Origin: Berberis thunbergii
Taxonomy: Eukaryota > Streptophyta > Magnoliopsida > Ranunculales > Berberidaceae
Assembly (NCBI GenBank): GCA_003290165.1
Contig: QNQO01000653.1
Span: forward strand, 434,001 to 498,000
DNA: 64,000 nt
Direction of reading: 5' to 3'
The notes beneath the pieces were generated by a model. The model was not told the origin of the DNA, did no database searches, and saw only the letters and a program-made list of their open reading frames with translations. Position numbers and translations under genes: made by a program. Positions 1 through 39,284 of the stretch are shown piece after piece (the stretch's first letter is position 1; the number at the start of each line of letters is the position of its first letter).

Positions 1-56
1 CAATATAAGCACCAAAAGTCATTTCATTAAAGAAAAAACATATTACCATTAAAATT

Positions 57-400
57 TATATGTGAAGACAATACAACATTGTCGAATTCAAAGAGTTCCC
101 TTGGAACATTAGGCTCGTTCTCATAAACATCCAAACTAGCACCTCCAATCTCTCCTTCCAGCAAACACTGCACCAATTCCTTATCATTGACGAGGGAACC
201 ACGTCTCACATTAATCAAAATTCTATCCTTTCCCAGTGCAGACAAGACATCCTTGTCTATGATGTTGTATGTTTCACCAGTCAACTTCCACCAAACAACT
301 AGAATGTCACTATTAGCAGCAAGATCATGGACATATGTATAGTAAGGAAAAGAAACATGTGGTTTCTTATTTCTTGAGTTGTAGCAACTAGTGCCACCAT
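57..400 (-). pseudogene. Hydroxyphenylpyruvate/hydroxypyruvate reductase fragment
   Basis: About 110 codons match the catalytic-domain end of plant D-2-hydroxyacid dehydrogenases (HPR2/HPPR type, NAD(P)H reduction of hydroxypyruvate or hydroxyphenylpyruvate). Recognisable pieces in order are FPYYTYVHDLAANSDILVV, the IIDKDVLSALGK helix, LINVRRGSLVNDKELVQ carrying the catalytic-arginine region, GEIGGASLDVYENEPNVP, and the start of the strand with the catalytic His (VVLSSH). The Rossmann GxGxxG loop and both ends of the enzyme are absent. G-to-R and WW substitutions at conserved sites also argue against function. It is open in the same frame as the preceding Gly-rich RNA-binding tail, so the two form a chimera. 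Family assignment is confident; the exact junction (about 385-400) is my estimate. Confidence 0.75.
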
Positions 401-1357
401 TACCAATAGCACCCCTAGGAGCAGTCCCATAGCCGGTATTAGCACCAAGATCATGGGCGCCCCAAGGGATCCTTACAGCACTAGGTGGGCCACTTGCATA
501 AACAATATTAGGGGCATTGGGGTTTCCATATCCTGCTACTCCATTGTAACCACCACTTGCATTAGTGCATCCACCATACTCACCATAGCCATTATTTGCT
601 ACACCATATCCATCCAGGGTTGTCATAGCCTGAAGAACCATATCCTGAAAAATTACCTCCAGCTGCTTGAGGTTGCATGTATCCGTTAGAATCCATCCGC
701 CCATCATATGAACCATCATTGGCTCCAAAAACACCATAGCCTTGATAATTTCCACCACCCATTGAACAACCACCACTTCCGCCACTACCACCAGGGTTTG
801 CATCCTTTGGAAGAACATGTTTAACTTCAACAAGTTTACCATTCAAGTCATGGAAACACTTGTGCAGAACCCTGTCAACTACATATTCAGTATCAAAGGA
901 TATGACCCCAAAACCACGAGGACGTTGGGTACTTTGATCATACGTAACTACTACATCTTTTACATGACCATAGATCTCAAAGTACTAACAAACCCTTCTT
1001 CAGTCAAAGTTGGAGGCAAACCTACGACAAATATCTTTTTCGTCTTCATATTACCCCTACCTCTACCTGCATTAGGGTTTCCACATCTAGTAGTGGTGTG
1101 TTGTTCTTCTTTGGACAAAGCCCTTTTGGCCTCTACCGTTCTCCCATCAGTTGTATGTTTGTCCTAAAGGACCCCATCGAGCACAAAGGATCTGAAAGAC
1201 AACAAATCCGAACCCATGAGGCCTTCCAGTGACCTTATCATGCATAATTGCATACTGCATCACTTCTCCATATTGCCCAAAATGCTCATTAAGCTTCTCA
1301 TCTGATGTCTCCTATGAAATCCCCCCAAATGGATAGCTTCCCCTAATCTGAATCCAT
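400..1357 (-). pseudogene. hnRNP-type two-RRM, glycine-rich RNA-binding protein pseudogene
   Basis: Reading the minus strand from an ATG at 1357 gives a plant hnRNP1/Musashi-like protein. RRM1 contains SDEKLNEHFGQYGEV and the RNP1-like HGFGFVVF (about 1340-1140). A linker follows, then RRM2 with KIFVVGLPPTLTEE, an RNP1 reading RGFGVISF and HKCFHDLNGKLVEVKHVLPK (about 1045-815), then a Gly/Tyr/Asn-rich tail (about 815-400). Living relatives bind RNA in nucleus or cytoplasm. It is disabled: codon 5 is TAG (1345-1343), a frameshift lies in the RRM1-RRM2 linker, another falls near 985 in RRM2, and another near 620 in the tail. No introns are visible, which suggests a processed copy, though I see no poly(A) tail or target duplication. 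Its tail runs in frame into the reductase fragment. Confidence 0.75.
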
Positions 1358-1673: not shown

Positions 1674-1913
1674 ATGAATTCTTCTCCCCCATGGCACGAA
1701 CCACCACCATCCCTCTTCACATCAAACAAACCTTCACCTTCGAACCCCCAATCTAAAAAATGCTTCTTTCATCAACCCTACAAGACCCCCACCTCCCAAA
1801 ATTGGCAAAAACTTGCCTTTCAGTTGACTTCTAAGACAGAGAGCAGATTTGGGGGCAAAACGAGCCTTGATTGATGCTAATGACATGAAGGGATTGAAGT
1901 TTCGTCGATTCAA
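1674..1913 (+). other. Unidentified coding-like remnant flanking the copia element
   Basis: Between the GC-rich repeat and the 5' LTR the sequence has coding-like composition in shifting frames. It starts with an ATG in a Ser/Pro-rich, plastid-transit-like context (1691 onward) and ends with a stretch reading ALIDANDMKGLKFRRFN just before the LTR. I do not recognise the protein. It may be a host gene remnant interrupted by the retrotransposon; the acidic stretch at about 7000-7070 beyond the 3' LTR could be its continuation, but no target duplication supports that. Confidence 0.25.
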
Positions 1914-1916
1914 TAT

Positions 1917-2198
1917 TGAGAATATTCTCATGATTATGCTATTGAATATGGTATTGAGAATATTCTCATGATTATGCTCTCAATTATGCTATTGTGAAGA
2001 TTGTCTTGATTATGTGAATATTGTATTTTAGGATGATTGCATATTCGGTCAAATTTGTATAAGGAAGTTAGCAGATTGTTAGGGTGATTAGGAGTTGCCC
2101 ATATTGGCAAAATAGCTTGTATATAAACAGCAATAGAACAATGAAAAGATCATAGCATGGTTCTCACATAATTATTTCTTTTGTCCTGTTATTTGTTA
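1917..2198 (+). repeat. 5' LTR of Ty1/copia retrotransposon
   Basis: This region matches 6699-6968 nearly base for base. It carries the same TATATAAACAG promoter-like motif (2118-2128) and the same ending before TGGTATCAGAGC. The 5' copy has a roughly 12-bp extra segment near 1945 relative to the 3' copy, and I count about ten substitutions between the two by eye. It begins TGAG and ends TTA; the 3' copy ends TCA, so the canonical CA end is mutated here. The primer-binding site follows immediately. Confidence 0.85.
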
Positions 2199-2210
2199 TG
2201 GTATCAGAGC
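2199..2210 (+). promoter_or_regulatory. Primer-binding site, initiator tRNA-Met type
   Basis: TGGTATCAGAGC directly follows the 5' LTR and is complementary to the 3' end of plant initiator methionine tRNA. This is the standard minus-strand primer site of Ty1/copia elements and fixes the LTR boundary. Confidence 0.85.
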
Positions 2211-2231
2211 CATAGCCATTAAACACAGATC

Positions 2232-3149
2232 ATGGCTGGCGGTGACGTTCCTACCGGCGAGACTCGGAAGACGATTTCACCTTACGAGTAGTCACGAGAC
2301 CTCCAACTCACCACCACCACAGACGTTGAGAACTTCCCTGGCTTCCCTGATGGAATTCTAGGGTACGAACTTATGGATCGGTGTCGCAACCAGTCGATTC
2401 GTTTCAAGACTCAAGTGTTCACCAAAACTGTGAACAAGGTCAAATTCTCTTCGAATCCTTTCAAGATCTTCGCGGATGAGAAAACTGTCGAGGCCGATAT
2501 GGTAATCGTCGCCACTGGTGTAGTCGCCAAGAAACTGAGTTTCGCTGGATCAACCGAGTTCTGGAATTGGGGAATTTTTATTTGTGCGGTGTGTGATGAT
2601 GTTGCTCCAATCTTTAGGAACAAGCCCTTGGTGGTGATTGGCAGCGGAGATTCAGCCATGGAAGAGGCTAATTTCTTGACCAAGTATGGTTCTAGGGTTT
2701 ATATTGTTCATTGTCGTGATATGTTTAGGGCATTCAAGATTATGCAGAATAGGGCTTTGACTAATCCCAAGATTGAAGTGATGTGGAATTCTATGGTCGA
2801 GGAAGCTTATGGCGAAGGGGCTTTGCAAGGGTTGAAGGTCAAGAATGTTGTAAGTGGGGATGTTACTGATTTGAAGGTGTCCGGTTTGTTTTTCGCCATT
2901 GAACATGAACCAGCAACCAAATTCTTGGATGGACCATTGGAGCTTGATTCTAATGGGTATGTTGTGACTAAGCCTGGAAGTATGCAGACGAGTGTTCATG
3001 GGGAAATTATGGCCCTCGCCACACGAACTCGTCTTGACGAAAGAGATAAATCTAGTACGGTGTGTTTCCACTGTAAAAGGACGGGGCATGAATATAACAA
3101 TTGTTTTGCCTTGTACGGATATCCAAAGTGGTGGGGTGACCGACCCTGA
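2232..3149 (+). pseudogene. Chimeric Gag: copia Gag N-terminus, thioredoxin reductase insert, Gag zinc knuckle
   Basis: One frame runs from an ATG at 2232 to 3149, broken only by a TAG at 2289-2291. Residues 1-19 (MAGGDVPTGETRKTISPYE) are a copia Gag start. From about 2301 to 3002 the protein is a plant NADPH-dependent thioredoxin reductase (NTRA/NTRB type). It shows the [16 protein letters not shown] segment, the VIVATG strand, the redox CAVC pair, the NADPH loop [12 protein letters not shown], and [16 protein letters not shown]. From about 3003 it returns to Gag and ends in a CCHC knuckle (C-x2-C-x4-H-x4-C, 3064-3105). The reductase lacks its N-terminal FAD GxGxxG region and its C-terminal GVFAAGD region, has lost several residues before CAVC, and reads HCRD where HRRD is usual. 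It therefore cannot work as a reductase. No intron is seen in the captured part, consistent with capture of an mRNA copy. Confidence 0.85.
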
Positions 3150-6100
3150 AGAGATGGGAAAGGTGTTGGTACTGGTTGCGGTAGAGGGCAGTCAAGCGTT
3201 CGAGGCAGTGGTCGAGGAACCAAGGGTATGCATCGTGCCAACGCTGCTCAGACAGGTTTTGCTGGGGAAGGAGTGCCCGAGACAGATGCATCTCCACTGC
3301 CCGGGCTGAATACCGATCAGTGGCAGACACTTCTCCAAATGTTGGGCGGGTCAAAATCCGCAACGACCGATAAGATGACTGGTGAGCCTTGGATTATTGA
3401 CACGGGTGCTTCGAATCACATGACTGGCATGATCGGGGATCTCCGTGACTTAAGGGCAATTGCTCAATGTCCCATGGGATTGCCAGATGGGAGTAGCACT
3501 ATCGCCACTAAAAAGGGGACGGTCATTCTTGAAAGAAATTTCTGTTTGAAAAATGGTCTTTATGTGCCAGGGCTAACTTGAAATTTAATTTATGTGTCGC
3601 AATTGACTGATCACTATAACTGTTTTGTCCAATTCACTAATGATCTGTGTGTTATACATGACCGCACTTCGAGGATGTTGATTGGTGCGGGTGAACGACG
3701 CGATGTACTCTATTACTTCTGGGGGCTGCCACAGGTTCACGCAATAAAGGGCAATAGTATGGTGTCTCTTGATCTATAGCACCAGCGATTGGGTCATCCA
3801 TCTCTACAAGTAACAAAGTTAGTTCCCGAAATAAGTTTTAGTGAAACGAAAAATCGCTTGAATAAAAATTGTGATGTCTGCCAGAGGGCAAAGCAAAGTA
3901 GAGATAAGTTTCCTGTTAGTGAACATAAAGCTTCGACTATTTTTGAACTTATTCACACTGATTTATGGGGACCTTATAGAACAACTTCTTATTGTGGTGC
4001 TTCTTATTTTTTGACCATTGTTGATGATTTTTCCCGTGCTGTATGGATTTATTTACTTGTTGATAAGAAAAAGGTCTCCCATACTCTTCAAATGTTTTTC
4101 TCGATGGTTAAGAGACAATTTGATAAAGAGGTAAAAATTTTGCGAAGTGATAACGGCACTGAATTCACTTGCTTGCGACAATATTTTCTTGATCATGGGA
4201 TTGTTTTTCAAATGCCTTGTGTGGGAACACCTCAACAAAATGGGCGGGTTGAACGGAAACACCAACATATTTTGAACGTAGCTCGGGTGCTGCGTTTTCA
4301 GGGCTCTCTTCCTATTGAGTTTTGGGGAGAATGTGTGTTGACGACTGGATACTTAAAAATAGAACTCCCTCCTTGGTCTTGAATGGGAAAACACCTTATA
4401 GTGTCTTATATAACAACACAGCCACTTACGATCACTTGCGCATTTTGGGGTCCTTATGTTATGCGCATGTGCAGACGGGGGATAAGTTTGCCAGTAGAAG
4501 TCGAAGGTGCATCTTTGTTTGGTACCCTTATGGAAAAAAGGGGTGGCGTTTGTATGACTTGGAGAAACGAGATTTCTTTGTTTCTCGTAATGTTGTATTC
4601 TCGGAATGAGTTTTTCCCTTTGCAGATAATTTTAATTTAGACCACGATGATCTGCCTAATATCGAGGCAGTTCACGAGGACTTTGAGGAGACATCTACGC
4701 CTGTTTTGAGGGGGTGTCGAGGAGTTTGTACAGCCGGATGGGGCTGCTGGCAGTTGCCATGTGCCGAGGAGTTTGTTCAGCCAAATAGGGCTGCTGAGCA
4801 GTCGGCTTGTGCCGAGGAGTTTGTTCAGCCAAATAGGGCTGCTGAGCAGTCGGCTTGTGCCGAGGCGTTTGTACAGCCGGATGAGTCTGGTGGACAGCCG
4901 GTTTATGCGAACCAGGAGGACAACCCGGACGCAAGTCGGGAAGATGTGTTGGGTAGGGGTCAACGCAGAAGGCAAGCTCGGTACGACTCCGTGATTATGT
5001 TACTCATACCATTCGAAAAATGAGTCCATCTGTACTAGCATCACCCGTGCCACGACATTCCTCAGGTACACTCTATCCTATCGCACATTATGTGAATTGT
5101 GATAATTTTTCTGTGCGACATAGACATTTTCTTGCAGCCTTGACAACAAATCGAGAACCTGTGTGCTATTCTGAGGCCGCGAAAGACAGCCGCTGGAGGG
5201 ATGCCATCCGACGAGAAATTGAGGCTCTTGAGATTAATGAAACCTGGGTTGTAGCAGAATTGCCACCAGGAAAGAAAGCTCTAGGATGCAAGTGGGTATA
5301 CAAGATCAAGTATAATTCTGATGGTACCATTGAGCGATTGAAGGCTCGACTGGTTATTCTTGGGAATCATCAAATTGAAGGAATTGATTATACAGAGACA
5401 TTTGCTCCAGTAGCTAAGATGGTTACAGTGAGGGTATTTCTTGCCGTTGCGGCTGCCATGAATTGGGAAGTTCATCAGATGGATATTCATAATGCATTTC
5501 TACATGGTGACCTTACGGAGGAGGTATACATGAAATTACCACCCGATTTTCAGGTGGGGACTTACGAGAAGGTGTGCAAGCTTAGAAATATTATATGGGC
5601 TGAAGCAGGCACCCTGGTGCTGGTTCGCTAAACTGTCAACTGCTTTGAAGAATTATGGTTTTCAACAATCTTATTCAGATTATTCTTTGTTTACTCTACA
5701 GAGAGGTGCGGTTCAGATTAGTGTTCTTGTTTATGTCGACGATCTTATCATCTCTGGGAGTAATCCGGGTTATATACAGAAATTCAAGGGTTACCTCAGT
5801 GCTTGTTTCCACATGAAAGATCTGGGTCCTTTAAAGTATTTATTGGGGGTAGAAGTGACATGCGAACCAGATGGGTTTGTACTTTGTTAACGCAAATATG
5901 CTCTTGACATCATTTCTAAGGCTGGATTGCTAGGGGCAAGGCTTGCGGCGGTGCCACTGGAACAGAATCACCGACTCCCCTTGCCTACGAGTCAAGAGCT
6001 CGCTGATCCAGAGCCTTACCGTCGCTTGGTGGGGCGGCTAATTTATTTGTGTTTTACTTGACCCGAATTATCTTACAGTGTTCATGTTTTATCTCAATCT

Positions 6101-6688
6101 ATGCAACGTCCTCGGGCAGACCACTGGGAAGCTGCTTTGCGGGTGGTCCAGTACTTAAAAGGTAATTCGGGTCAAGGTATACATTTGAGTAGTAAATGTG
6201 ACATGCAGTTACATGGGTGGTGTGACGCTGATTGGGCCGGATGCCCATTGACTAGATGGTCCCTCACTGGGTGGTTAGTGTTTCTTGGGAACTCGCCAGT
6301 ATCTTGGTAGACGAAGAATCAACATATAGTATCCCGTTCCTCCGCAGAGGCGGAATACCGGTCTATGGTTATGACTACATGTGAGTTGAAATGGCTAAAA
6401 GCTATTTTAGCTAGCCTCGGGATGCCCCATACACGTCCTATGTCTCTTCATTGTGATAGTCAGGCGGCTCTCCATATATCTCAAAATCATGTATTTCATG
6501 AACGGACAAAACACATTGAGGTCGATTGTCACTTTGTCCATAATGACATTGTTGTCAGAAATATCAACCCCACCTTTGTCCCGTCCAATGCGCAACTCGC
6601 TGACATTTTCACAAAAGTATTGGGCAAGCGACAATATGAGTATCTATCTCGCAAGTTGGGCATACGTGATCTCCATGCACCAACTTGA
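3150..6688 (+). pseudogene. Ty1/copia Pol polyprotein (protease, integrase, RT, RNase H), degenerate
   Basis: Copia domain order is intact. The protease has DTGAS (about 3400). A GAG-pre-integrase region contains LGHPS and the CDVCQRAK zinc motif. The integrase shows HTDLWGP, SDNGTEF and the E of GRVERKH (3955-4260). The reverse transcriptase has KWVYKIKYNSDGT, FAPVAK, the QMDIHNAFLHGDL catalytic region (5170-5600), then YVDD (5735). RNase H has CDADWAGC, SSAEAEY, the HIEVDCHFV region and ADIFTK, to the stop near 6688. It is dead: stops at about 3580, 3777, 5888 and 6308, with frame changes near 4350, 4610, 5010, 5615 and 6055. Integrase preceding RT identifies copia, not Gypsy. Confidence 0.9.
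4716..4906 (+). repeat. Four-unit 48-bp minisatellite within copia pol
   Basis: Four tandem units begin at 4716, 4763, 4811 and 4859. Units 2 and 3 are identical over 48 bp; unit 1 is 47 bp and so shifts frame; unit 4 is diverged. In frame they encode a 16-residue repeat of the AEEFVQPNRAAEQSAC type in the linker between integrase and reverse transcriptase, a region normally variable in copia elements. Confidence 0.9.
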
Positions 6689-6698
6689 GGGGGGGTAT
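6685..6698 (+). promoter_or_regulatory. Polypurine tract before the 3' LTR
   Basis: A TGAGGGGGGG run lies immediately upstream of the 3' LTR, in the position and composition expected of the plus-strand priming site of the copia element. Confidence 0.7.
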
Positions 6699-6968
6699 TG
6701 AAAATATTCTCTTGATTATGCTATTGAGAATATTCTCATGATTATGCTCTCAATTATGCTATTGTGAAAATTGTCTTGATTATGTGAATATTGTATTTTA
6801 AGATGATTGCATATTCGGTCAAATTTGTATAAGGAAGTTAGCAGATTGTTAGGGTGATTAGGAATTGCCTATATTGGCAGAATAGCTTGTATATAAACAG
6901 CAATAGAACAATGAAAAGATTAGAGCATGGTTCTCACATAATTATTTCTTTTGTCCTGTTATTTGTCA
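6699..6968 (+). repeat. 3' LTR of Ty1/copia retrotransposon
   Basis: This copy of the 5' LTR begins TGAAAATATTC and ends TTTGTCA. It contains TATATAAACAG at 6890-6900. The 5-bp sequences outside the two LTRs (around 1912-1916 and 6969-6973) do not match, so no target-site duplication is preserved. Confidence 0.85.
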
Positions 6969-7313
6969 TCCAAAGTCGTTTTTTTTTTGTTGGTTTGATG
7001 AAAATGTTTCAAAACAATGAAGAAAAAGATGCTCCTCCTGATGAAGATGAAGAAGACGAAGAAATTGCAAATCATTTTTTTTTCTTCTTTCTATTATCCT
7101 CCTTCCTGTTTGATCTTCTTGAAGGACGAGAGAGAACTTACTGGAGAATTTTGGGGATAAGGTCATAAGGGTTAAAACTTATGTTTCATTTTTCTTTGAA
7201 TGTGATGTGACTTTTTCTTACAGAGAATTGAATGTGATGTGACTTCTTGATAAGGGTTGTTCTCTTGGTACAGCCAGAGAACAACCAGAGATAATAATGA
7301 GACTTTTTATGTA

Positions 7314-7498
7314 GAATTGTTCTACACAGCGAGGAAGCGGGAGAGGAAATCAGCCAGGGAGGGAGAGAGGGGACCACCCATCCCCCTAGGGATGCGTGAC
7401 ATCATTTTTCATGCTCGCATCCCAAGGGGGATGGGCGATCCCCTCTCTCCCTCCCTCGCTGATTTCCTCGCCCACTTCCTCGCCATTTAGAATTTCTC
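7314..7498. mobile_element. Mutator-like hairpin MITE with 9-bp target duplication
   Basis: The element is an almost perfect inverted repeat. The left arm GCGAGGAAGCGGGAGAGG.. (7329-7395) is mirrored by ..CCCACTTCCTCGC (7416-7483) around a loop of about 20 bases. It is flanked by identical 9-bp direct repeats TTTTATGTA (7305-7313 and 7499-7507), the target size typical of Mutator-type transposition. Related hairpins with the same GAAATTCTAATTGGCGAGG-like end lie at about 17412-17595 and 27990-28135. There is no coding capacity. Confidence 0.8.
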
Positions 7499-19379: not shown

Positions 19380-22300
19380 ATGTTATCAGAATTGATGAAC
19401 TTTCTGAAGGCTTGTTGGTGTCCCACATCAGATCAATATGTTCAAGCAGGTCCAGACGCTGTGGGTCGACAGGATGGGCTTCTTTGGTACAAAGACACCG
19501 GCCAGCACATGAATGGCGAGTTCTCGATGGCTGTTGTCCAGGCCAATAATTTACTTGAGGATCAAAGTCAAGTAGAGTCGGGGCCTCTGAGCTCACATGA
19601 GTCCGGACCATATGGGACGTTTGTTGGAATATATGATGGGCATGGTGGGCCTGAAACATCGCGATACATTAATGATCACCTCTTCCCCCATCTCAAGAGT
19701 AAGGATCATAATTTGTGGAAAATTGGATTTTCTATTGTACATGTGGTTTTAAGTTTGAATGCACTTAAGTTTCGTTCAATTCAGATCTTGTATTTTACTA
19801 GTAATTGAGAACATATCTAAATAGTTGGGGTAGTGCGATGATTGGCATCTAGTTTGTGATTCTAATTATTTTATTGCAGGATTCACTTCTGAGCAGCAAT
19901 CTATGTCGGGGGATGTGATTAGGAAAGCATTTCAGGCAACTGAAGAGGGGTTTCTCTCTGTTGTCACAAAACAGTGGTCGGTGAAACCTCAGATTGCAGC
20001 AGTTGGATCTTGTTGCTTAATTGGGATCATCTGTGGTGGGATCCTCTACATTGCTAATGCTGGTGACTCTCGTGCTGTTTTGGGGAGACTTGTCAAGGCA
20101 ACTGGTGAGGTTTTATCTGTTCAGCTCTCATCAGAGCATAATGCCAGTATAGACTCAGTAAGACAGGAATTACACTCTTTGCACCCCGATGACTCGCAGA
20201 TTGTAGTTTTGAAGCATAATGTGTGGCGTGTGAAGGGAATTATTCAGGTCAGTTTTTTTTAGGACTGTACAGTGTACATTTACTTAGCAAGCTAGGCATG
20301 TAAGATCCAAGTTAGCTATGCAGAACAAAATTTATTATTAACACCAGAATCTTACCTGTAAAAACATAGTTACAAATATTTTCCTGAGTACATATACTGC
20401 AATTATGTGAGAGAATGTTTCGTCAACATATTCTGACCTGACATGACAGAGAACATGTATGAAAAGTTCATGAATTGATGAAGGTTTCTCTTAAATGGTT
20501 AAATGGTAGATAGACGCTTTGTGTTCCTATTGGCAGCGAGGAAAAGTGTGGAGAAATGTCAGTAAGGCTATTATATTATGCGTTTTGAGACAACTAAAAT
20601 GACAATGCACTACCCCTATTCTTTTAGCTTCCTTGCCTAGGAAGGAAAGGGGGACAACTAAGGAACAGGATAAGATTGTTACTTACATATGTACTCTTGA
20701 TAATTGGGTTGTTAACACTTGATGGTTCTTAAAGGTAGAAGGGGTAACAAGCACCTAACCCTTTGGACTGGGTAAGCCATGGCGACACAGTCAATGCACA
20801 GCTAAACGTTCTGGATGGACATTTTATCTTAAGATAAAAAATTTGGCTAAAGAGGAGGAAAAATCGCTACTTCTATTCGGGGAGTGAGTCAAGTGAAGGA
20901 TTAAAAGTCATTAAATCATATAAAAGTAGAAGATGGTGATCAAACCAAGAGGAATTTTTTTGTTATGGGTAATGGACTACATTAGACCCAAAAGAGGGTG
21001 AGCTTCAGGTGTCTGATTTTAATGTTCTGGGAGGAAGATCAAGGCTGGCAATCAGCAAATGAGATTTCTGGTGCATCACATCAGTGCAAGGATTTATTAG
21101 AAAATGGAAAAAGCAAAGGGTGATTGATCGTGAAAGTGGTCGAGAAGTCAAGTGTGAGATTCGTGAAGATGTGCCATTTTCAGAAATAGTTGGTCAACCA
21201 AACATTATAATGATATACTTGTATAGAAAATCGGTTGCAAAAATCATTTGTAGTGGAAATATAATTCCACAAACCTAAAATGTAGCCTTTTTTTCCCCTT
21301 TTCAATCCATGCATGTCTTTTCCGGAAAAAGTGGACATTATTGCATCTCGTCCCTTCTTTTGTTTAGTTTGTGTAAGGCATTTTTGTCATATTTTGTTTC
21401 TATCAAATGGCCAGTACAAACTTCCTTTACTTGGACCAATATTTGTATTAATAACTTTTTTTTTTTCTGTGAATTTCATTTCTGAAGTAACCCTTTAATT
21501 ATTGATTCGCCAAACAATGGTTGCTGTCGATCCTTTTGAAAAAATTCAGTTTTTGTTATCACTGTGAGTTATCTTGGGGTTTTTTCACTTTCTGAATTTT
21601 ATATTGTTGCTTTCACAAATGGTGTTTAATTGTACATATATTTGACTAGTGGGTGATACATTGAGCAATGACTATGGGATAAGATATACTTCCTTACTTG
21701 TGGGTGATGAGAATATAGAGCTAGTATGGAACTATTTCTAGTTAGTCAGACCTCAACTCTATAGCTAGTATGGAATTATTTCTAGTTAGTCAGACCTCAA
21801 CTCCCTAGTAATTTGTTGGCACAAGAGTTGATAACATAGAGATATATGATTACAGTGACAGTTTGTGTATTTGCTTATTTAAATGAAGCAGGTATTATCC
21901 CAAGTTTTGGGTGCATCTGTACAGTGACATAGTTTTATGATACCTTCAATTATTAACAGACAATCTTTGATTTACAGGTTTCTAGATCCATAGGTGATGT
22001 TTATTTGAAGAAGGCCGAGTTTAACAGGGAACCTCTGTACTCAAAATTTCGTGTCCGTGAACCTTTCCGAAAGCCAATATTGAGTGCTGAACCAGCAATC
22101 ACTGAGCACCAATTGCAACCGCATGACCAATTTGTTATATTTGCATCAGATGGGCTTTGGGAGCACCTTAGTAATCAGGAGGCTGTCGATATAGTTCAGA
22201 ATCATCCACGAAGTGTAAGACTTACATATCCCTGTAAATACCTAGTTATCTAAGCAGGTTTTATTTTGTACTCGTTAGGCTAGCTAAAATGAGTTAGTTC

Positions 22301-28135: not shown

Positions 28136-28890
28136 AGCTAGAAAACTCTATAAATTTGTATAAAACAATATTTGATTGCATGTCTGGCCTCTATCATACA
28201 TTAATTAGTGGTGCACACGTGTTAGTTCATTGATTATTGTTATCAAATGCTTAATTTTAGCATGATGTGGCCAAGCCTTATGAAAGAATATCTTTATCGA
28301 GCATGCTAATGAGGGTATAGACAATTTGAAGCTCAACATAGCAAAAAATGCTTGGGCAAGTTGCCTCGCAGCAAAGGCCGAAGGGTACATAATCGCAAGA
28401 AAACGATCAGCAAAGGGTTCATGCAAATAAGGAAAAGTCAACGAAGTCAGACAACTTCAAATGAATCTGTAGGATTCACATGTACAATCATCTTCCCCTT
28501 CGTGTACCAAATGCATGAGTGCCGCGTGTAGTATGAAAGAAGCGTATCTAGCATTAACTACGTATCAGTGGTGTAGTATAAAAGGGCTCTCGCTAATGTT
28601 TAAGTGAGCCTGGATGAGGCCCAGAAAATTTCATGTGTTAGCAATGTGCGATGCTTCACTTCTCGTATCTAAATGTAGTCAAATAAAAACATAAATGCAC
28701 CCTTTCTCTTCGTCACACTTTATGTGTAAACAATTTTTAGCTCATAGAACGCAAAGATTTAGTCTTGTAGAAAGGGTGGTTGCTATTTATTTTTTTATTT
28801 TTTATTTTTAACAATCCACTATTATACCCCATTTCATTCGAAATTCATAAATTGTGTAATCTTGCCTGACATCGGTATTGGATGCTCTTA
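28136..28890. other. Intergenic region without visible genes
   Basis: No coding-like frame, RNA gene or repeat with clear ends was recognised here. Confidence 0.4.
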
Positions 28891-29218
28891 GGGTGTGTTT
28901 GGTTGCATGAAATCTTATGCCATGAGAATTCATGAGGGGACCACTACATTTTAGGCTAAATTGATATATCACTCCACATTTACCATTTGACCACCATTTG
29001 ATTTTGTAATCAATGGTAGGAATGGAAGTCCCATAAACATGAGAATCTCACTCCTTGGCCCTCAAGGCATGTGATTCTCATGTTCATGGGACTTTCATTC
29101 CCACCATTGATCACAAAACCAAATGGTGGATGTGGAGTGATATATCAATTTAGCCTAAAATATAGTGGTCCCCTCATGAATTTCCATGGCATAGAATTTC
29201 ATGCAACCAAACACACCC
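28891..29218. mobile_element. Tourist-like (PIF/Harbinger) MITE with TTA target duplication
   Basis: Terminal repeats GGGTGTGTTTGGTTGCATGAAAT and ATTTCATGCAACCAAACACACCC are near-perfect inverted copies. TTA sits on both sides (28888-28890, 29219-29221). The whole 328 bp folds on itself (CCATTTGATTTTGT.. against ..ACAAAACCAAATGG). The 3-bp TTA target and G-start termini indicate PIF/Harbinger. A second member is at 50461-50779. Confidence 0.85.
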
Positions 29219-29221
29219 TTA

Positions 29222-29657
29222 GCGTCAGGCAGTTGTTTAGGTTTCACATTCAAACAACTAAATAATTGCTCAACATGCTAGCACGGGTTAAAAATGGGTG
29301 AGCGAGTTCCTTCACATTTTCATTTTAGTAAAATGGAAGTGGGCCTAATGTTAAAGTTTAAAGTAATGGCGCGTAAAGAGTAAAAAACTACAAACTAATT
29401 GGGACCCAATGTAAAAAAAAAATTTGTTTGTTAAAGTTTAAATTATACTTATATTACTTTAGAATTATCTATTATGTTGTAGTTTTTGGTATTGTAGAAT
29501 CTCTGAGATTACATCCAACAATACTTCCCTCAAGATTTACAGGTTTTACCATGAGTTGAACTCAAGCTTGTTACATCGCTATTCTTTTTCAAATTCGACG
29601 GCAATGCAATCATATTTTACCTAAAGCGTGAAGATAATTTCAATTTTGTATTATTGT
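29222..29657. other. Intergenic region without visible genes
   Basis: AT-rich sequence with no recognisable coding frame or repeat termini. Confidence 0.4.
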
Positions 29658-32284: not shown

Positions 32285-35200
32285 ATGGGTTGTGCTGTGT
32301 CTAAGCTAGAAGAGGAAGAAGAGGTAGTTTCGTTGTGTAAGGAGAGGAAGCGCCTCTTGAAATCAGCTGTGGACAGGAGATATGCTCTTGCTGATGCTCA
32401 TTGTAAGTATATTCACTCTTTGAATGCAGTAGCTGCAGCTCTAAGGTTCTTTGTTGCTAGACACTCTTCACCTTCTTCACCATTTCTCATCACCTTCCCA
32501 CCTGCTTGTCCTGAGTCACCCCCACCAGCTGAAATTGAGAACACTATCTCCAACCCTTTGTTCCTTCAGCAAACACCCACAAAACCCACTCAAGAAGCGG
32601 TGACTTGTCAGTTGCCAAGTTCCTCAATTTCTTCTGATTCTTCAGAGGGGGAGAGGGTTGATGATAGAGTGGTGAGGGAAAGAGAAAGAGAAAGGGAAAG
32701 ACAAGAACAAGAAGCTATACAAATGCAACAAGCTTGTGGGTATTTTTATTCAAGTATGCCACTACCAATGCCATCACCCCAGAGAGAGTTTGGGTGGGAT
32801 TTCTTCAACCCATTTAATGGAATGAAGCCTGGAGTGATTGGTGGGTTTAGTAGGAACTCTGATGAGGACTTGAGAGTGGTGAGGGAGGAGGAAGGGATTC
32901 CAAAGCTAGAAGAGGTAGAGGTGAGAGGAAGAGGAGAAAGTAAGGTTATGTTAGAAGACAATCATCATGTTCATCATTTAAAGAAGGAAGATGAAGATGA
33001 AGATGAAGATGATGATGATGATTATGATGAGGAGGAAGAGGAGAGGGGGGAAGAGGTTGTGAAGGTAGGGGTTGTGGTAATGTGAGCCAAGGGGAGCATA
33101 AAGGCTTGATTGATACACCGGTAAGGGGTAGGGAGTTACTAGAAGCATTGAAAGATGTAGAGGACCATTTCATTAGGGCATATGATTCTGGTATAGATGT
33201 CTCTAAAATGCTGGAGGTTAACAGAGTTCATCTCCAATCTGGTTTGGAGGAAATAAAAGGTGATGTATCTTTTCTTCATTCTTTCTCCTTTATCTCTTTT
33301 GAAGTCTTTCTTCTTTATTCCTTTGAAGAAGTAAATTCATCATCATCTTCAAAGCCCATTTCCGATATTTGAAGAAGTTTCATCATCATCTTCAAAGCCC
33401 ATTTCCGATATTTGAAGAAGTAAATATAATATTTTAATTGGGTTCGGTTTTAGATCAAATTTTTTGTTTGGGTTTTGATTTGGTTTCATATTGGTTGAAC
33501 ATAACAAAGGTGCAATAAGGTATTCTGTTTCATTTCATTGTGAGGAAGATGCAAAAATGGAAATTTATTTTATGGGTTTTTTTTTTAGATTGACTGGGTT
33601 TCATAAAAATCATCATCAGTTGAAGTGGGAAGGAAAAGCTTTATTTTTCCAATTTTCTCTATTGATTGTAGTTTGGATGTGTATTTTATTGTAATACATA
33701 CAATGCAATCATAATTACTGATCAAAGAAAGTAATTTTCCATTCGCTTTCCTTGATCAACTTATATGTCTTAGCTTAAGGAGAAAATGAAGATGCTACTT
33801 AGAATTATTTACAAAGTTCACTTGCATGATTTCCTTAACTTTTAATTGATTTTACCTCTTTCCCAATTAGATTCTATTATTGCGAATTGCCTTGTGTACA
33901 TTTATCTCATTGTGTTAGTTGCATAGTCAACACACTCACTCCCTTTCTCATGCATTGATTCCACTTGGAATGCAGAGAACTCGACAAAACTCATCCAATC
34001 TATCACATGGCATAGGTCCACCTCATCTCAGTCTTTGTCCTGTAAAACTTTTCTTGCATCTAGCTCAAAAAGTTCCTCTACATGGACCGAATTCAAAAAT
34101 GACCTATTTGATGAACATGGAGGAATGGACTCAGGAAGCCATTCTTCGACACTTGGAAGATTATATGCTTGGGAAAAAAAGCTCTATGAAGAAGTTAAGG
34201 TAGGCACATTCAAGGTGTTTTATCACAAGCATCTCATTCTTGCGTACATTATAATGGTGTTTTTGTCACATTTGAATGTTGATCCGTGATAAAGTAATTT
34301 ATAAGGTCAAAATGTGGTTTTGTTGCTATTCATTTCATGTTCATACTCCATACTATGTAGTATACTTGCTCTTCTTTCATTGGTGCAGAGCTTTGTGCAT
34401 TCATTGGTGCAGAGCTTTGTGCATAAGATGCAGCTTATGTTCTATTGCCTTGTTTCTGTTTCTTCTTTTGTGTTTCTTCTGGAGTGATTTAGGAGGTGTT
34501 TGTTTGAGGAAGAGGTCTAAAAGGAACCTCATAACTCTTAATAAGAGATTCTAACGGTAGGATTAAAGTGTTTGCATAACTTCTCTAGTTAGACTCTAAC
34601 TAGAAAGGTGAAATAAAGTCAAATGACTATTTTGCACAATGGAGAACACATTTGTAAACCCTCTATGTGGGCATCCCAGCCTGCGATTCTGATCCCATCC
34701 AATCCCCCTTTTTCTGGGTCCTTTTGGGATTGATCAAATCCATCCCGATTTAGAGTGGGATGGGATTGGGTTGGAGATTTTCAATCCCGCCCATTCCGAA
34801 CTAATTTATTTAATATTTATTATTATTAATTTTAATATTTTAATTAAGTCTGACTTGATTCTCAGACTTGATTTTGATTATTTATGTTGTTGATGTCATG
34901 TACTTGTAGTATTAACTATTTAAGACTTGATTATTGATGTAGTTGATGTGTAAGACTTGAATCATGTAGTATTATGTTGTAGAATCATGTTTGGTATGAA
35001 TTTTAGACTTATATAGATTTGCTGATACAAATAATTTTTTTTAGTACCATATAGTCTTGTTTTGAACTCGTACCCGTTTGGGATGAAATGAGGTCTATCT
35101 CGTTCATCATCGAAGCCCATTCCCGAGATTTTCGGGGTCGGCTACATGGATTTTGGTTCTCCAAGCAATGCGATCTTTCCACATTTCCTCGCCTAATCCA

Positions 35201-38200
35201 AGCTCAATGATATCTTCATTCACCGTCTTCATCCAAGTTTTCAACGGTCGTCCCCTCCGTCTACAACCTCCATTAACTTGCCAATCTAAACATTTTCTAA
35301 TTGGCGCCGTGCTTGGTCTCCTCCGCACATGATCAAACCAAGTTAAACGTCTTTCTCTAATTTTGTCCACTATGGGCGCTACACCTAAGTATATCCTAAT
35401 TTTTTCATTTCTAATTTTATCCTTACGAGTTTTACCACACATCCACCTTAACATACGCATTTCTGATACTGCCATCCTATGCGTATGTTGTCCCATAATA
35501 GCCAAACATTCTGAACAGTATAGCATGGCTGGTCGAACAATTGTTTTATAGTATTTCCCTTTTAGCCTTGCAGGCATCCTTCTATCGCATAATACTCCTG
35601 CGCCATTCTCCATTTCAACCACCCAGCTTTAATCCTATGGTCTACATCTTCTCCAATAGCCCCATTCTTTTGAATTATAGATTCTAGTTATCGAAAAGCC
35701 TCACACTCTGGGACCTCGACACCTTCGATCTCAATTGCATTACTTCTCCCTCTTGGTTCACACCCAAAGTTGCACACTAGATACTCCGTCTTTGAACGGC
35801 TAATTCTAAAACCTTTACTCTCTAAAGCCTTCCGCTACTTAACTAATTTTTGACCTAAACCTGCACTAGTTTCATCCATTAAGACAATATCATCTGCAAA
35901 TAACATCTCCAAGGTACATCTTCTTGCAGATGTCTCGTCAACTCATCCATGACCAAAGCAAATAGATGAACTTAACGCCGACCCTTGATGTAATCCTACG
36001 GACACTAAAAATTCACTAGACATCCTACCTACTGAGCGGACACTTGTTACAACCCCTTCATACATATCCTTAATGATATCGACATAACATTGAGACACTT
36101 TCTTCCTTTTCAAGCACCCACCAAATTAACTCCATTTGTTCTTATAAATTGGTACCACAATGCTATGCCTCCATGAATTTGGCATTTTTCTAGTTTTCAA
36201 AATCCTATTAAAGAGCTTAGTTAGCCATTGAATCCCAACGTCTCCCAGACATTTTCATGCTTCAATTGGTATATCATTCGGTCCAACGGCCTTCCCTGTT
36301 TTCATTCTTTTTAAAGCTTCTCTCACCTCTGTGGCACTAACTCTGCGATGGAACACGCGATCTCTCCCTTCCTGTGAAGCATACCCCTCTAAGTTTAACT
36401 CCCCTACACGTGTTCCATTGAGTAGGTTCCAAAAGTAATCATTCCATCTATCTAAAATCGCTTTATCCTGCATTAAAACTTTTTCATCCTCATGCTTAAC
36501 ACACTTAACATGACTCAAAGTCCCTAGTTTTTCGTTCTCTAGCTTTAGCTATCTTGAAAATATTTTTCTCCCCTTCCTTCATACCTAGCCTATTATAAAG
36601 AACATCATACACTCTCTTCTTAGCTTCTCCCACTGCTCTACTACTCAACTTCTTAGCCTGCTTATAAAGCTCATAAGACTCTAGGCATCTATCTTTTTGC
36701 CACACCTTAAAACATTTTTCTTTTCTGCAATGGTTTGTTACACATCAGCGTTCCACCACCATGTCTCCTTACCATAGAAACCTCCTCTTTTGGCCTGTCC
36801 TAGCTCTTCCTTCGCACATCGTCTTATTCGGTTTGTCAAATGTTCAAAAAGATCCGCGCTACTAGTTTTATCCCGTTATGAAGATAAAACAACGGGATGA
36901 CATCCCGTGCCCACCCCTAATGGAAAAGGGCAGTCTAATAAACCATATTTAGTAAAAAAAAACTTGGTTGATGAATGTCTAACCAAAACTAAAGATTGGG
37001 GAGCACATCTTATTAAGATGTTCAAAGTAAACACCAATATGGGGTGCCTCGTCTGATCGTCTACCTCCTCGTAATCAGTTGTGGTTACCCCCTAACATCT
37101 AGTTCTTTTGGTTGGAGATTCTTCTACCTCTTAATCATGAGTTTTTATAACATAATTACATTGAGGTGCCAGTCATATGAGTTTGCATTGTGGGCAAAAT
37201 AGTCATGTACCTTTTTATCGCCTGCTAGTTGGTGGCTGTAATTAGAGCTTAAATAAACACTTTAACTTTAAATTAGAGCCTCATTTCTATCTTAATAAGA
37301 AGTTAGACCTCTTAATCAAACAAACACCCCCTTAGGGAGACTCGAGTGAGGAAAGCTTCATATTTGGCCAATGGAATACTTTGATTTATATGATAAACTA
37401 GATCTTAAGGAGACTTGTTCCTCTCACCATAATACTGGGACAAGTACAACATTTCTTGTTGCATATAGGATCTGATTTGAGTTACCACTCAACATTTTTC
37501 TAAGTTATTATTCTCAATGAAGATGGTGCATTCAAAACTTTGCTTTGGCATCTCTGGCAAGTTGTTATTCATTTTTCTATTTGATATGGTTAGTTTAAGT
37601 GGATATTAGTGTATGCCTTTTTCGTTTGTTTCATCTATGTACCTATCTAGCAGGAACGTGAATTTGGCTAAAAGGCCGAACATTTTTTTGTTCATCTAGA
37701 TCCTCTTACATTATAGCGACTGAATTATCTGATTATAGTAAAAAACAGAGTCCAATGCCCCAGCCACATGTTGCAAATATGGGACCTAGACCAAGGGTTA
37801 AGTGGTTCAATTGGGAGATTTTCCAATCTTCTGGTCTGACACATTGGACTGCAGTCAAGAAGTTGCTGAAGGCTTTTCCTGGTCTTGATTGGTCTTCTTT
37901 TGCCTTCGAATATATAGTGAGTTCATGTAGCCAAAGACGTAGCTCTCATTGGGCGATCCACATGAAGTTTTTATTTTTGCTGGTTTGTGGCATATGAGCC
38001 TGGAATTCATATAATGACGAGTGTCACCTCCGTTTTTGCCTTTGTTTATTTTTTTTATGTTTTAAATGTGTGATTTATCTCAGCATGACATGTTTCTTGA
38101 TCTGCTATTTTTAGGCTGGAAATGATACTCGCAAAGCCTATGAACGCAAGTGCTCCCAACTGAGAAATCATGATGTCAGAGGCGATGACAGAAAATCCAC

Positions 38201-39284
38201 TGACAAAACCAAATCTGCAGTAAGGGATTTATATACAAGGATATTAGTTGCCATCAAAACAGCAGAGTCAATTTCAAAACAAATTGAGAAATTGAGAGAT
38301 GAAGAGTTGCACCCACAGCTTATTGAGCTTCTTAAAGGGTAAGGAAGCAAAAAACACATGCATTAATTGAGAGGAGTGGAACTGAAGTACGACAAAATCT
38401 AACTGTGTTTTTCTCCTTGCATTCTCTTTTGCAGGATGATGAGAAACTGGAAGGTTATGTTGGAATCCCATGAAACCCAGAACAAGATAATGGTTGAAGT
38501 GGCATCATTTACTTGCCCCAGTTTTGGAAAATTCTGCAACGACTCTCATCGCCTTGCCACACTACAGCTTGAAGCTGAGCTTCATAATTGGCGTACATGC
38601 TTTGGTGGATACATTACTGCATTAAAAGCTTATGTCGAAGCTCTCAATGGATGGCTATCTAAGTTTGTTGTCCCAGAAGTTGAATTCTGCTCCAGGGGCA
38701 GGTCTTCAGCTCCACCTTACCGAGTAAGTGGACCCCCATTACTTATAATATGCCACGACTGGTTAGCCTCACTGGAGAAATTACCAGATAAAGGAGTCAC
38801 ATATGCAATGAAGAGCTTTGGCAAGGATGTCAGAGCATTGTGGGTTCAGCTAGGAGAGGAGCAGCATCAGAAAAGAAAGGTAGAAAGCCTTGCAAAAGAG
38901 TTCGATAGGAGGGTTGTTGCATTTCAGAAGACAGAGAACAGGTTATTAGAGCCTAGTAAGCTGTCAGAACAGAAATCTGACATGGATATGCAGCAACGAT
39001 TCGAGTACTTGGGAGAGAGGAAGGACTTGTTGGACACATTTAGAAAAAGGCTTGATACCGAGAAAGACAAACACCAAAACCACATGGAGGAGACACAACG
39101 GATTGCATTAAATGGGTTTCAAACGGGGTTTTCTTCTATTTTTGAGTCTCTTATTGACTTCTCAAAGGCTTCTCTCAAAATGTGTGATGAGTTAATGCAG
39201 TACAATGAGAAGGCTAGGATATGTGATGAGAAGGGCGGGAACCCAACCTACATTGAGGTCTCTGGGGACATCAAGTTTCAGTAA
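32285..39284 (+). CDS. NRG2-like DUF630/DUF632 protein (four coding exons, one-base frameshift in exon 1)
   Basis: Exons 32285-33259, 33976-34199, 38115-38338 and 38435-39284 encode a plant DUF630/DUF632 protein of the NITRATE REGULATORY GENE2 / ROLLED AND ERECT LEAF family. Residues 1-60 are DUF630, [22 protein letters not shown], with Gly2/Cys3 suited to N-myristoylation and palmitoylation. A Pro/Ser-rich then acidic linker follows. DUF632 begins near [30 protein letters not shown] and continues through [59 protein letters not shown] and [15 protein letters not shown], with long coiled-coil stretches. Exon lengths total 2273 nt. As written the frame stops at 33083-33085; homology resumes one frame over at about 33082. 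A single missing base, plausibly in the G6 run at 33045-33050, would give 757 aa. All splice sites are canonical. It may be a sequencing error or a recent pseudogenising deletion. Confidence 0.85.
33329..33420. repeat. 47-bp tandem duplication in NRG2-like intron 1
   Basis: TCATCATCATCTTCAAAGCC through GATATTTGAAGAAGT occurs twice back to back just inside intron 1 (33260-33975). Confidence 0.9.
34378..34425. repeat. 24-bp perfect tandem duplication in intron 2
   Basis: CATTGGTGCAGAGCTTTGTG plus four bases occurs twice in tandem in the second intron of the NRG2-like gene. Confidence 0.9.
34666..36916. repeat. GC-rich repeat ends bracketing a LINE inside NRG2-like intron 2
   Basis: The left piece (34666-34800) has GGGCATCCCAGCC and repeated GGGATGGGATTGG blocks. 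The right piece (36880-36916) has CGGGATGACATCCCGTGCCCACCCCTA. Both resemble the ends of the GC-rich hAT-like repeat at 1451-1635, suggesting one element split by the RTE LINE. Target duplication is not visible, so this is tentative. Confidence 0.35.
35095..36870 (-). mobile_element. RTE-clade LINE remnant
   Basis: On the minus strand: a pre-RT segment ([20 protein letters not shown], 36700-36510), RT start ([29 protein letters not shown], about 36345-36255), the catalytic ADD motif in [12 protein letters not shown] (about 35925-35885), [14 protein letters not shown] (about 35790), then the C-terminal block [28 protein letters not shown] and [16 protein letters not shown] (35530-35270). The order and motifs are those of plant RTE elements. 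The 3' terminus GGCTACATGGAT/GGTCGG (about 35140) is the sequence shared with Au-type SINEs. Multiple stops and frameshifts, with a truncated 5' end, show it is dead. It lies antisense within the 3.9-kb intron 2 of the NRG2-like gene. Confidence 0.85.
36920..38114. other. Remainder of NRG2-like intron 2
   Basis: No second gene is visible. An open stretch at 37755-37997 ends without splice signals and resembles no family I recognise. Confidence 0.5.

What the first reader, a model, noticed from the sequence alone, without database searches (positions are those of the whole stretch)
2232..3149. Copia Gag rebuilt around a captured thioredoxin reductase, all in one frame
The retrotransposon's own Gag start, about 230 codons of an NADPH-thioredoxin reductase and the Gag CCHC knuckle share a single frame, broken only by one TAG at 2289. 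The captured part keeps the CAVC redox pair but lacks both ends of the enzyme. Host-gene capture by LTR elements is known, but an in-frame replacement of the Gag core by a redox enzyme, between LTRs that are still recognisable, is unusual. It could once have been expressed as a Gag-reductase fusion. Capture as spliced mRNA during packaging is my inference from the absence of introns.
Basis: partly seen in the sequence, partly recalled or inferred. Interest (0 to 1): 0.85.

Follow-up and report, generated by a model that had tools for sequence, protein, structure and literature searches.

The report
Jumping gene carrying a reductase fragment
A plant retrotransposon picked up most of one exon of its host's thioredoxin reductase gene in place of the middle of its own Gag gene, jumped to at least two places with it, and then decayed like an unused sequence.

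Summary
A Ty1/copia-type element (1914-6968, with LTRs, a 4-of-5-bp target duplication, PBS and PPT) carries 233 codons of plant NADPH-thioredoxin reductase (2304-3002) between a short Gag start and the Gag zinc knuckle, all in one frame. Close host genes are identified (95.0% and 94.7% DNA identity, no gaps). A second contig carries the same insertion with the same flanks, so an assembly artefact is unlikely. An independent copy with the same junctions sits elsewhere, with its own target duplication and the same LTR divergence (0.037 against 0.038). One capture was therefore followed by at least two insertions. One inference falls: the captured piece lies wholly inside exon 1 of the host gene, so the lack of introns says nothing about mRNA. 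After insertion the piece decayed without visible constraint (29 amino-acid changes seen, 29.9 expected), mostly by C-to-T/G-to-A change (32 of 45). It lacks both FAD-binding ends. It is a well-resolved new member of a known kind: host-gene transduction by a plant LTR element, as in maize Bs1. Copies without the insert could not be sought, because the genome's DNA search did not complete.

The parts
1909..1913 (.). 5' target-site copy TTCAA (3' copy TCCAA, 4 of 5)
   Evidence: same on the allele L010
1914..2198 (+). 5' LTR, 285 bp
   Evidence: 10 differences in 273 aligned bases to the 3' LTR, K2P 0.038, plus a 12-bp indel
2199..2210 (+). primer-binding site, TGGTATCAGAGC (initiator-Met tRNA type, label recalled)
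   Evidence: sequence
2232..2303 (+). Gag start and first ~24 codons, with a TAG at 2289
   Evidence: start conserved in copy 2 (15 of 19 residues)
2304..3002 (+). captured NADPH-thioredoxin reductase, 233 codons, no internal stop or indel
   Evidence: host genes L004/L007 95.0/94.7% identical
3003..3149 (+). Gag C-terminal part with CCHC zinc knuckle, ends at a TGA
3228..3578 (+). Pol piece with Pol_BBD domain (PF22936)
3789..4379 (+). integrase core (PF00665)
5020..5628 (+). reverse transcriptase piece (PF07727); after the integrase = copia order; in another frame than the integrase
6687..6695 (+). polypurine tract GAGGGGGGG
6696..6968 (+). 3' LTR, 273 bp
6969..6973 (.). 3' target-site copy TCCAA

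Best explanation
This is a Ty1/copia-type LTR retrotransposon that acquired, in one event, 699 bp of exon 1 of a host NADPH-thioredoxin reductase gene in place of its Gag core. The most likely route (inferred) is two template switches in a particle: reverse transcriptase left the Gag RNA just 5' of the zinc knuckle, copied a co-packaged reductase transcript, and returned near the Gag start. Both joins kept the frame (1 in 9 by chance for a sense insert, my arithmetic), so a fused Gag-Pol reading frame remained. Because the capsid core was gone, later movement needed Gag from relatives in trans (inferred). LTRs, PBS and PPT were kept, so the chimera still served as a template: shown by two independent insertions with the same junctions and equal LTR divergence. 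Both insertions then decayed without visible constraint, mainly by C-to-T/G-to-A change as expected of methylated, silenced elements (methylation inferred). The reductase part most likely never worked as an enzyme in the element.
For: Reductase identity. Element anatomy and target duplication. Same insertion with the same flanks on C8650. Independent copy on C7980:62434-74965 with the same junctions, target copies AGACG/AGTCG, LTR K2P 0.037, Pol pieces 92-95% identical, split by a 7.6-kb nested insertion. Close host genes and an outgroup pair. Polarised changes: 29 on the fragment side (21 C>T/G>A), 0 on the host-gene side, counted only where the two alleles of the insertion agree and L004 and L007 agree., 674 bp compared with copy 2: 25 private to the window copy, 20 to copy 2, 5 shared, of which I drop one (2351) because host gene L007 has it. 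Neutrality: on the private branches N 29 observed and 29.9 expected (stops left out); in the C>T/G>A class N:S 21:10 against 204:105 opportunities. Residues at least 98% conserved in 120 plant reductases: 11 of 118 changed in the window copy (one of the 11 is not on the allele), against 0 to 5 in each of the 120; 9 of the 10 single-step changes are C>T/G>A, expected share 0.23, p 1.5e-5 at kappa 2.
Against: No copy of the element without the insert was examined: the host-genome DNA searches did not complete, so native Gag and junction microhomology are unknown. The count of copies is a lower bound: one search scored only 10 of 996 candidates and did not even list the window's own copy. Template switching versus a DNA-level event is not decided, because the captured piece has no intron to lose. 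Only four changes fall between capture and the split of the two copies, too few to test constraint in that phase. The non-C>T/G>A private changes taken alone are N:S 8:4 against 1284:351 (ratio 0.55, p 0.30), which leans towards constraint but is far from significant.
Confidence: 0.85

Rival explanations
1. The Gag-reductase fusion was an expressed protein that helped the element, for example an NADPH-binding domain fused to the zinc knuckle, and was kept by selection during its active phase.
For: Both joins are in frame; the central stretch with CAVC is there; the chimera transposed after capture. The small non-C>T/G>A class has N:S ratio 0.55, not significant.
Against: The captured piece corresponds to residues 100-334 of the 378 of P0001; the missing ends carry the FAD-binding segments (family knowledge, recalled). 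Of the four changes before the two copies split, three change amino acids: two at residues at least 98% conserved and one at 94%. Private branches look neutral overall. Copy 2 has a 23-bp deletion that breaks the frame between Gag start and reductase, and two stops.
Confidence: 0.04
2. The insert entered at the DNA level (break repair or gene conversion from the host gene) rather than by template switching.
For: The captured stretch lies inside one exon, so genomic DNA and mRNA would look the same.
Against: Sense orientation and replacement rather than addition suit copy-choice during reverse transcription, and template switching is a described route for chimeric plant LTR elements (PMC13317346, passages). 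This is weak evidence.
Confidence: 0.2
3. LINE-type processed pseudogene that landed in Gag.
For: Intronless sense copy, but the donor stretch has no intron either.
Against: Both ends lie inside the coding sequence, and Gag coding sequence follows directly at 3003 with no poly(A) or 3' UTR.
Confidence: 0.02
4. Assembly chimera.
For: None beyond the assembly being split into 11,732 contigs.
Against: Same junctions on C653, C8650 and C7980; on C7980 a 23-bp deletion starts at the 5' junction and leaves only its Gag side.
Confidence: 0.01

Closest known systems
[quoted passage not shown]
   Same: Plant LTR element carrying partial host coding sequences, explained by transduction, forming a chimeric gene (PMC13317346 passages; PMC7264820 passages).
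   Different: Here one gene, thioredoxin reductase, and replacement of the Gag core; decay looks neutral, whereas Bs1's chimeric gene is reported as transcribed and translated (PMC13317346). Whether Bs1 fuses part of Gag itself is my recollection; the primary papers are not held.
LTR-captured genes of rice, sorghum and maize (672, 1,343 and 424 reported)
   Same: Genes within full-length LTR elements, some copied to new sites by the element (PMC3726574, passages).
   Different: That count takes annotated genes between LTRs; here close host genes, junctions, two dated insertions and a neutrality test are worked out for one case.
Acute transforming retroviruses with Gag-host fusions (recalled, no call)
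   Same: Host coding sequence replaces part of the viral genes and the result depends on helper proteins.
   Different: No sign of a working fusion protein here.
Template-switch chimeras BARE-2 and Veju of Triticeae
   Same: Chimeric LTR elements ascribed to switching between co-packaged RNAs (PMC13317346, passages).
   Different: The acquired sequence there comes from another element or is unknown; here it is a host exon.

Membership tests
Ty1/copia LTR retrotransposon | Two LTRs with target-site duplication | tested here: met
   1914-2198 and 6696-6968, TTCAA/TCCAA 4 of 5
Ty1/copia LTR retrotransposon | PBS and PPT at the inner LTR borders | tested here: met
   2199-2210 and 6687-6695; tRNA type recalled
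Ty1/copia LTR retrotransposon | Integrase before reverse transcriptase | tested here: met
   PF00665 at 3789-4379, PF07727 at 5020-5628
Ty1/copia LTR retrotransposon | Gag with capsid core | tested here: not met
   Reductase stands between Gag start and knuckle in both copies; a chimera, not a complete member. No intact-Gag copy was available for comparison.
Host-gene transduction by LTR element (Bs1 type) | Identifiable host gene elsewhere | tested here: met
   L004/L007, 95.0 and 94.7% over 699 bp
Host-gene transduction by LTR element (Bs1 type) | Captured piece in sense orientation within the element and co-mobilised | tested here: met
   Two independent insertions with the same junctions
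Host-gene transduction by LTR element (Bs1 type) | Introns lost (RNA intermediate) | tested here: inconclusive
   The captured stretch contains no intron in the host gene
Host-gene transduction by LTR element (Bs1 type) | Hybrid ORF transcribed and translated | not testable with these tools
   No RNA or protein data
Functional NADPH-thioredoxin reductase | N-terminal and C-terminal FAD-binding segments | tested here: not met
   Only residues 100-334 of 378 of P0001 are covered (junctions); that the ends bind FAD is recalled family knowledge
Functional NADPH-thioredoxin reductase | CxxC redox pair | tested here: met
   CAVC in the window copy; copy 2 reads CVVC
LINE-processed retropseudogene | Poly(A) and 3' UTR at the insert's end | tested here: not met
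   Gag coding sequence follows directly at 3003

The most novel reading that the evidence does not exclude
During its short active phase the chimera made a Gag-linked NADPH-binding redox domain that took the place of the capsid core and aided its own movement or particle redox state, before both known insertions decayed.
Probability: 0.04. Interest if true: 0.75.

Novelty: new member of a known kind. Interest (0 to 1): 0.38.

Why it matters
It is an unusually complete case history of host-gene capture by a copia element: close host genes, exact junctions, two dated insertions and a neutrality test in one genome. It indicates that losing the Gag core need not stop further movement, and it warns that 'no introns' proves nothing when the donor stretch is a single exon.

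Tried and rejected
Capture from spliced mRNA shown by lack of introns: rejected as an argument. Capture clearly older than the insertion: before the host genes were found, the C/G-site rate ratio reductase/LTR was 2.0 (0.73-5.7, p 0.16, with an estimated LTR site count; 1.9, 0.70-5.5, p 0.17 with counted sites), undecided. With host genes and copy 2, private-branch rates equal LTR rates within error: window ratio 1.18 (0.49-3.1), copy 2 ratio 0.99 (0.37-2.9). LTR transitions were not polarised.

Other genomes: none of the best 120 listed of 6,842 protein hits covered more than 83% of the fusion. A search with residues 212-258 alone found no candidate. Two scans of viral contigs found no relative. 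In a tree of 39 of the 120 reductases the fragment fell among mostly Ranunculales sequences, with one non-member (Cephalotus) inside, support 0.78 and 0.58. A neighbouring DUF632 gene gave no close species (best 69%). No paper in the held library held the terms retrotransposon, thioredoxin reductase and gene capture, or retrotransposon, thioredoxin reductase, LTR and captured gene. Other paper searches were seen as listings only, apart from the papers named in this report; passages of PMC12561512 gave no exon count for the reductase gene.

Rows dropped; 10 sites where L004 and L007 differ and 3 where the two alleles of the insertion differ; the first 25 bp, deleted in copy 2; 2 sites without a clear ancestral base; 3 allele-polymorphic sites set to the ancestral base; site 2351 afterwards, by hand. 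Stops (2, both in copy 2) are left out of the N:S test. In one search the four columns after 3002 that one search had included are left out.

Full report
What is there. The window is G000:C653:434001-498000 of an unnamed 2.24-Gb assembly in 11,732 contigs; that it is a plant follows. At 1914-6968 lies a copia-type element: LTRs of 285 and 273 bp with 10 differences in 273 aligned bases (8 transitions, K2P 0.038) and one 12-bp indel, flanked by TTCAA/TCCAA. PBS and PPT are in place, and integrase comes before reverse transcriptase. Pol is broken by stops and by a change of frame between integrase and reverse transcriptase. Between a short Gag start (2232) and the zinc knuckle (3003-3149) sit 233 codons of NADPH-thioredoxin reductase, 2304-3002, in the frame of both.

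Host genes. A Pyr_redox_2 scan of the host genome scored the best 10 of 996 candidates and returned eight loci. Five of the eight match the fragment by blastn: L008 99.6%, L004 95.0%, L007 94.7%, L005 90.8%, L006 90.3%; L001-L003 do not. L004, L005, L006 and L007 have open frames of 309-380 codons without a stop in the matched stretch. L004 and L007 differ from each other at 10 of 699 bases. On L014 (the L007 gene) exon 1 runs to about residue 356, and the last 24 residues lie about 3.5 kb downstream. The captured stretch is inside exon 1, so it could come from mRNA or from DNA.

Not an artefact. L008/L010 (C8650) carry the same insertion with the same flanks; the first 9,000 bp of the window match with 48 mismatches and 71 gap positions in 9,005 columns. 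It is an allele or haplotype copy, and it also has the TAG at 2289. Its own LTRs give K2P 0.032.

A second insertion. The lowest-ranked of the ten hits, on C7980, is another copy of the chimera. Its 5' LTR begins at the same base as the window's, and the Gag start, reductase, 3' junction and knuckle are shared; a 23-bp deletion begins at the 5' junction, leaving the Gag side of it. The copy is split by a 7.6-kb nested insertion, after which Pol pieces (92-95% identical by blastn) and the 3' LTR follow. Its target copies are AGACG/AGTCG (4 of 5), unlike the window's, so it is an independent insertion. Its LTRs differ at 9 of 248 aligned bases, K2P 0.037. The deletion breaks the frame from the Gag start, and the reductase part has two stops. 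It does not share the stop at 2289.

History. With host genes as parent and outgroup, 29 substitutions fall on the fragment side and none on the host-gene side; 21 are C>T or G>A. With copy 2 included (674 bp), five were scored as shared. One is also in host gene L007 and is dropped, leaving 3 amino-acid-changing and 1 silent. 25 are private to the window copy (17 N, 8 S) and 20 to copy 2 (12 N, 6 S, 2 stops). C>T/G>A rates per site are 5.6% and 4.4% on the two private branches and 0.9% shared, against 4.8% and 4.4% transitions per C/G site per LTR lineage in the window and in copy 2. So capture came shortly before two insertions of similar age. With recalled plant rates of 0.7-1.3e-8 per site per year that is roughly 1.4-2.7 million years; the rate is not from a call.

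No visible constraint. On the private branches 29 N changes were seen and 29.9 are expected from mutational opportunity. In the C>T/G>A class the N:S ratio is 21:10 against 204:105; the remaining class is 8:4 against 1284:351 (ratio 0.55, p 0.30), too small to decide. At residues at least 98% conserved among 120 plant reductases (the best hits) the fragment departs at 11 of 118; the 120 themselves, each left out in turn, depart at 0 (68 of them), 1 (35), 2 (13), 3 (3) or 5 (1). One of the 11, at codon 2901, is not on the allele. The open frame over 233 codons is not evidence of function: about one C>T/G>A stop was expected over both private branches; one was seen, in copy 2, with one stop of another type beside it.

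How it works. Shown: one set of junctions, in-frame joins in the window copy, at least two insertions, decay without visible constraint. Inferred: template switching as the route, Gag supplied in trans, methylation as the cause of the C>T bias. The in-frame joins have a 1-in-9 chance for a sense insert; staying in frame would also have kept Pol translatable, which may be why this chimera moved again (inference).

Comparison. [quoted passage not shown] passages seen). This case belongs to that kind. Its own points are the captured gene, the site (the Gag core) and the resolved history.

Noticed in passing
L011 4614 to L017 2709 (C7980:63613-71209): 7.6-kb nested insertion inside the zinc-knuckle part of copy 2, with CACGG on both sides and internal direct repeats of about 1.0 kb (90.6%) and 0.4 kb (96.6%).
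   Followed up: partly
window 4750-4908: Three tandem units with 48-bp spacing in the Pol spacer between integrase and reverse transcriptase.
   Followed up: no
window 7320-7492: Inverted repeat with 77-bp arms, 88% complementary, 19 bp apart, just outside the 3' LTR; looks like a small MITE.
   Followed up: no
window 6696-6968 vs 1914-2198: The 3' LTR lacks 12 bp that the 5' LTR and both LTRs of copy 2 carry; on the allele L010 the 3' LTR lacks another 12.
   Followed up: partly
window 32285-39281: Pieces of a DUF630/DUF632 plant gene (PF04783, PF04782); nearest named relative of the DUF632 piece 67% identical.
   Followed up: partly
window 19903-20259 and 27-842 (minus): Protein phosphatase 2C fragment (PF00481) and a 2-hydroxyacid dehydrogenase open frame (PF02826).
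   Followed up: no
window 28887-29222: Inverted match of a 336-bp stretch to itself, 84% identical, a long hairpin.
   Followed up: no
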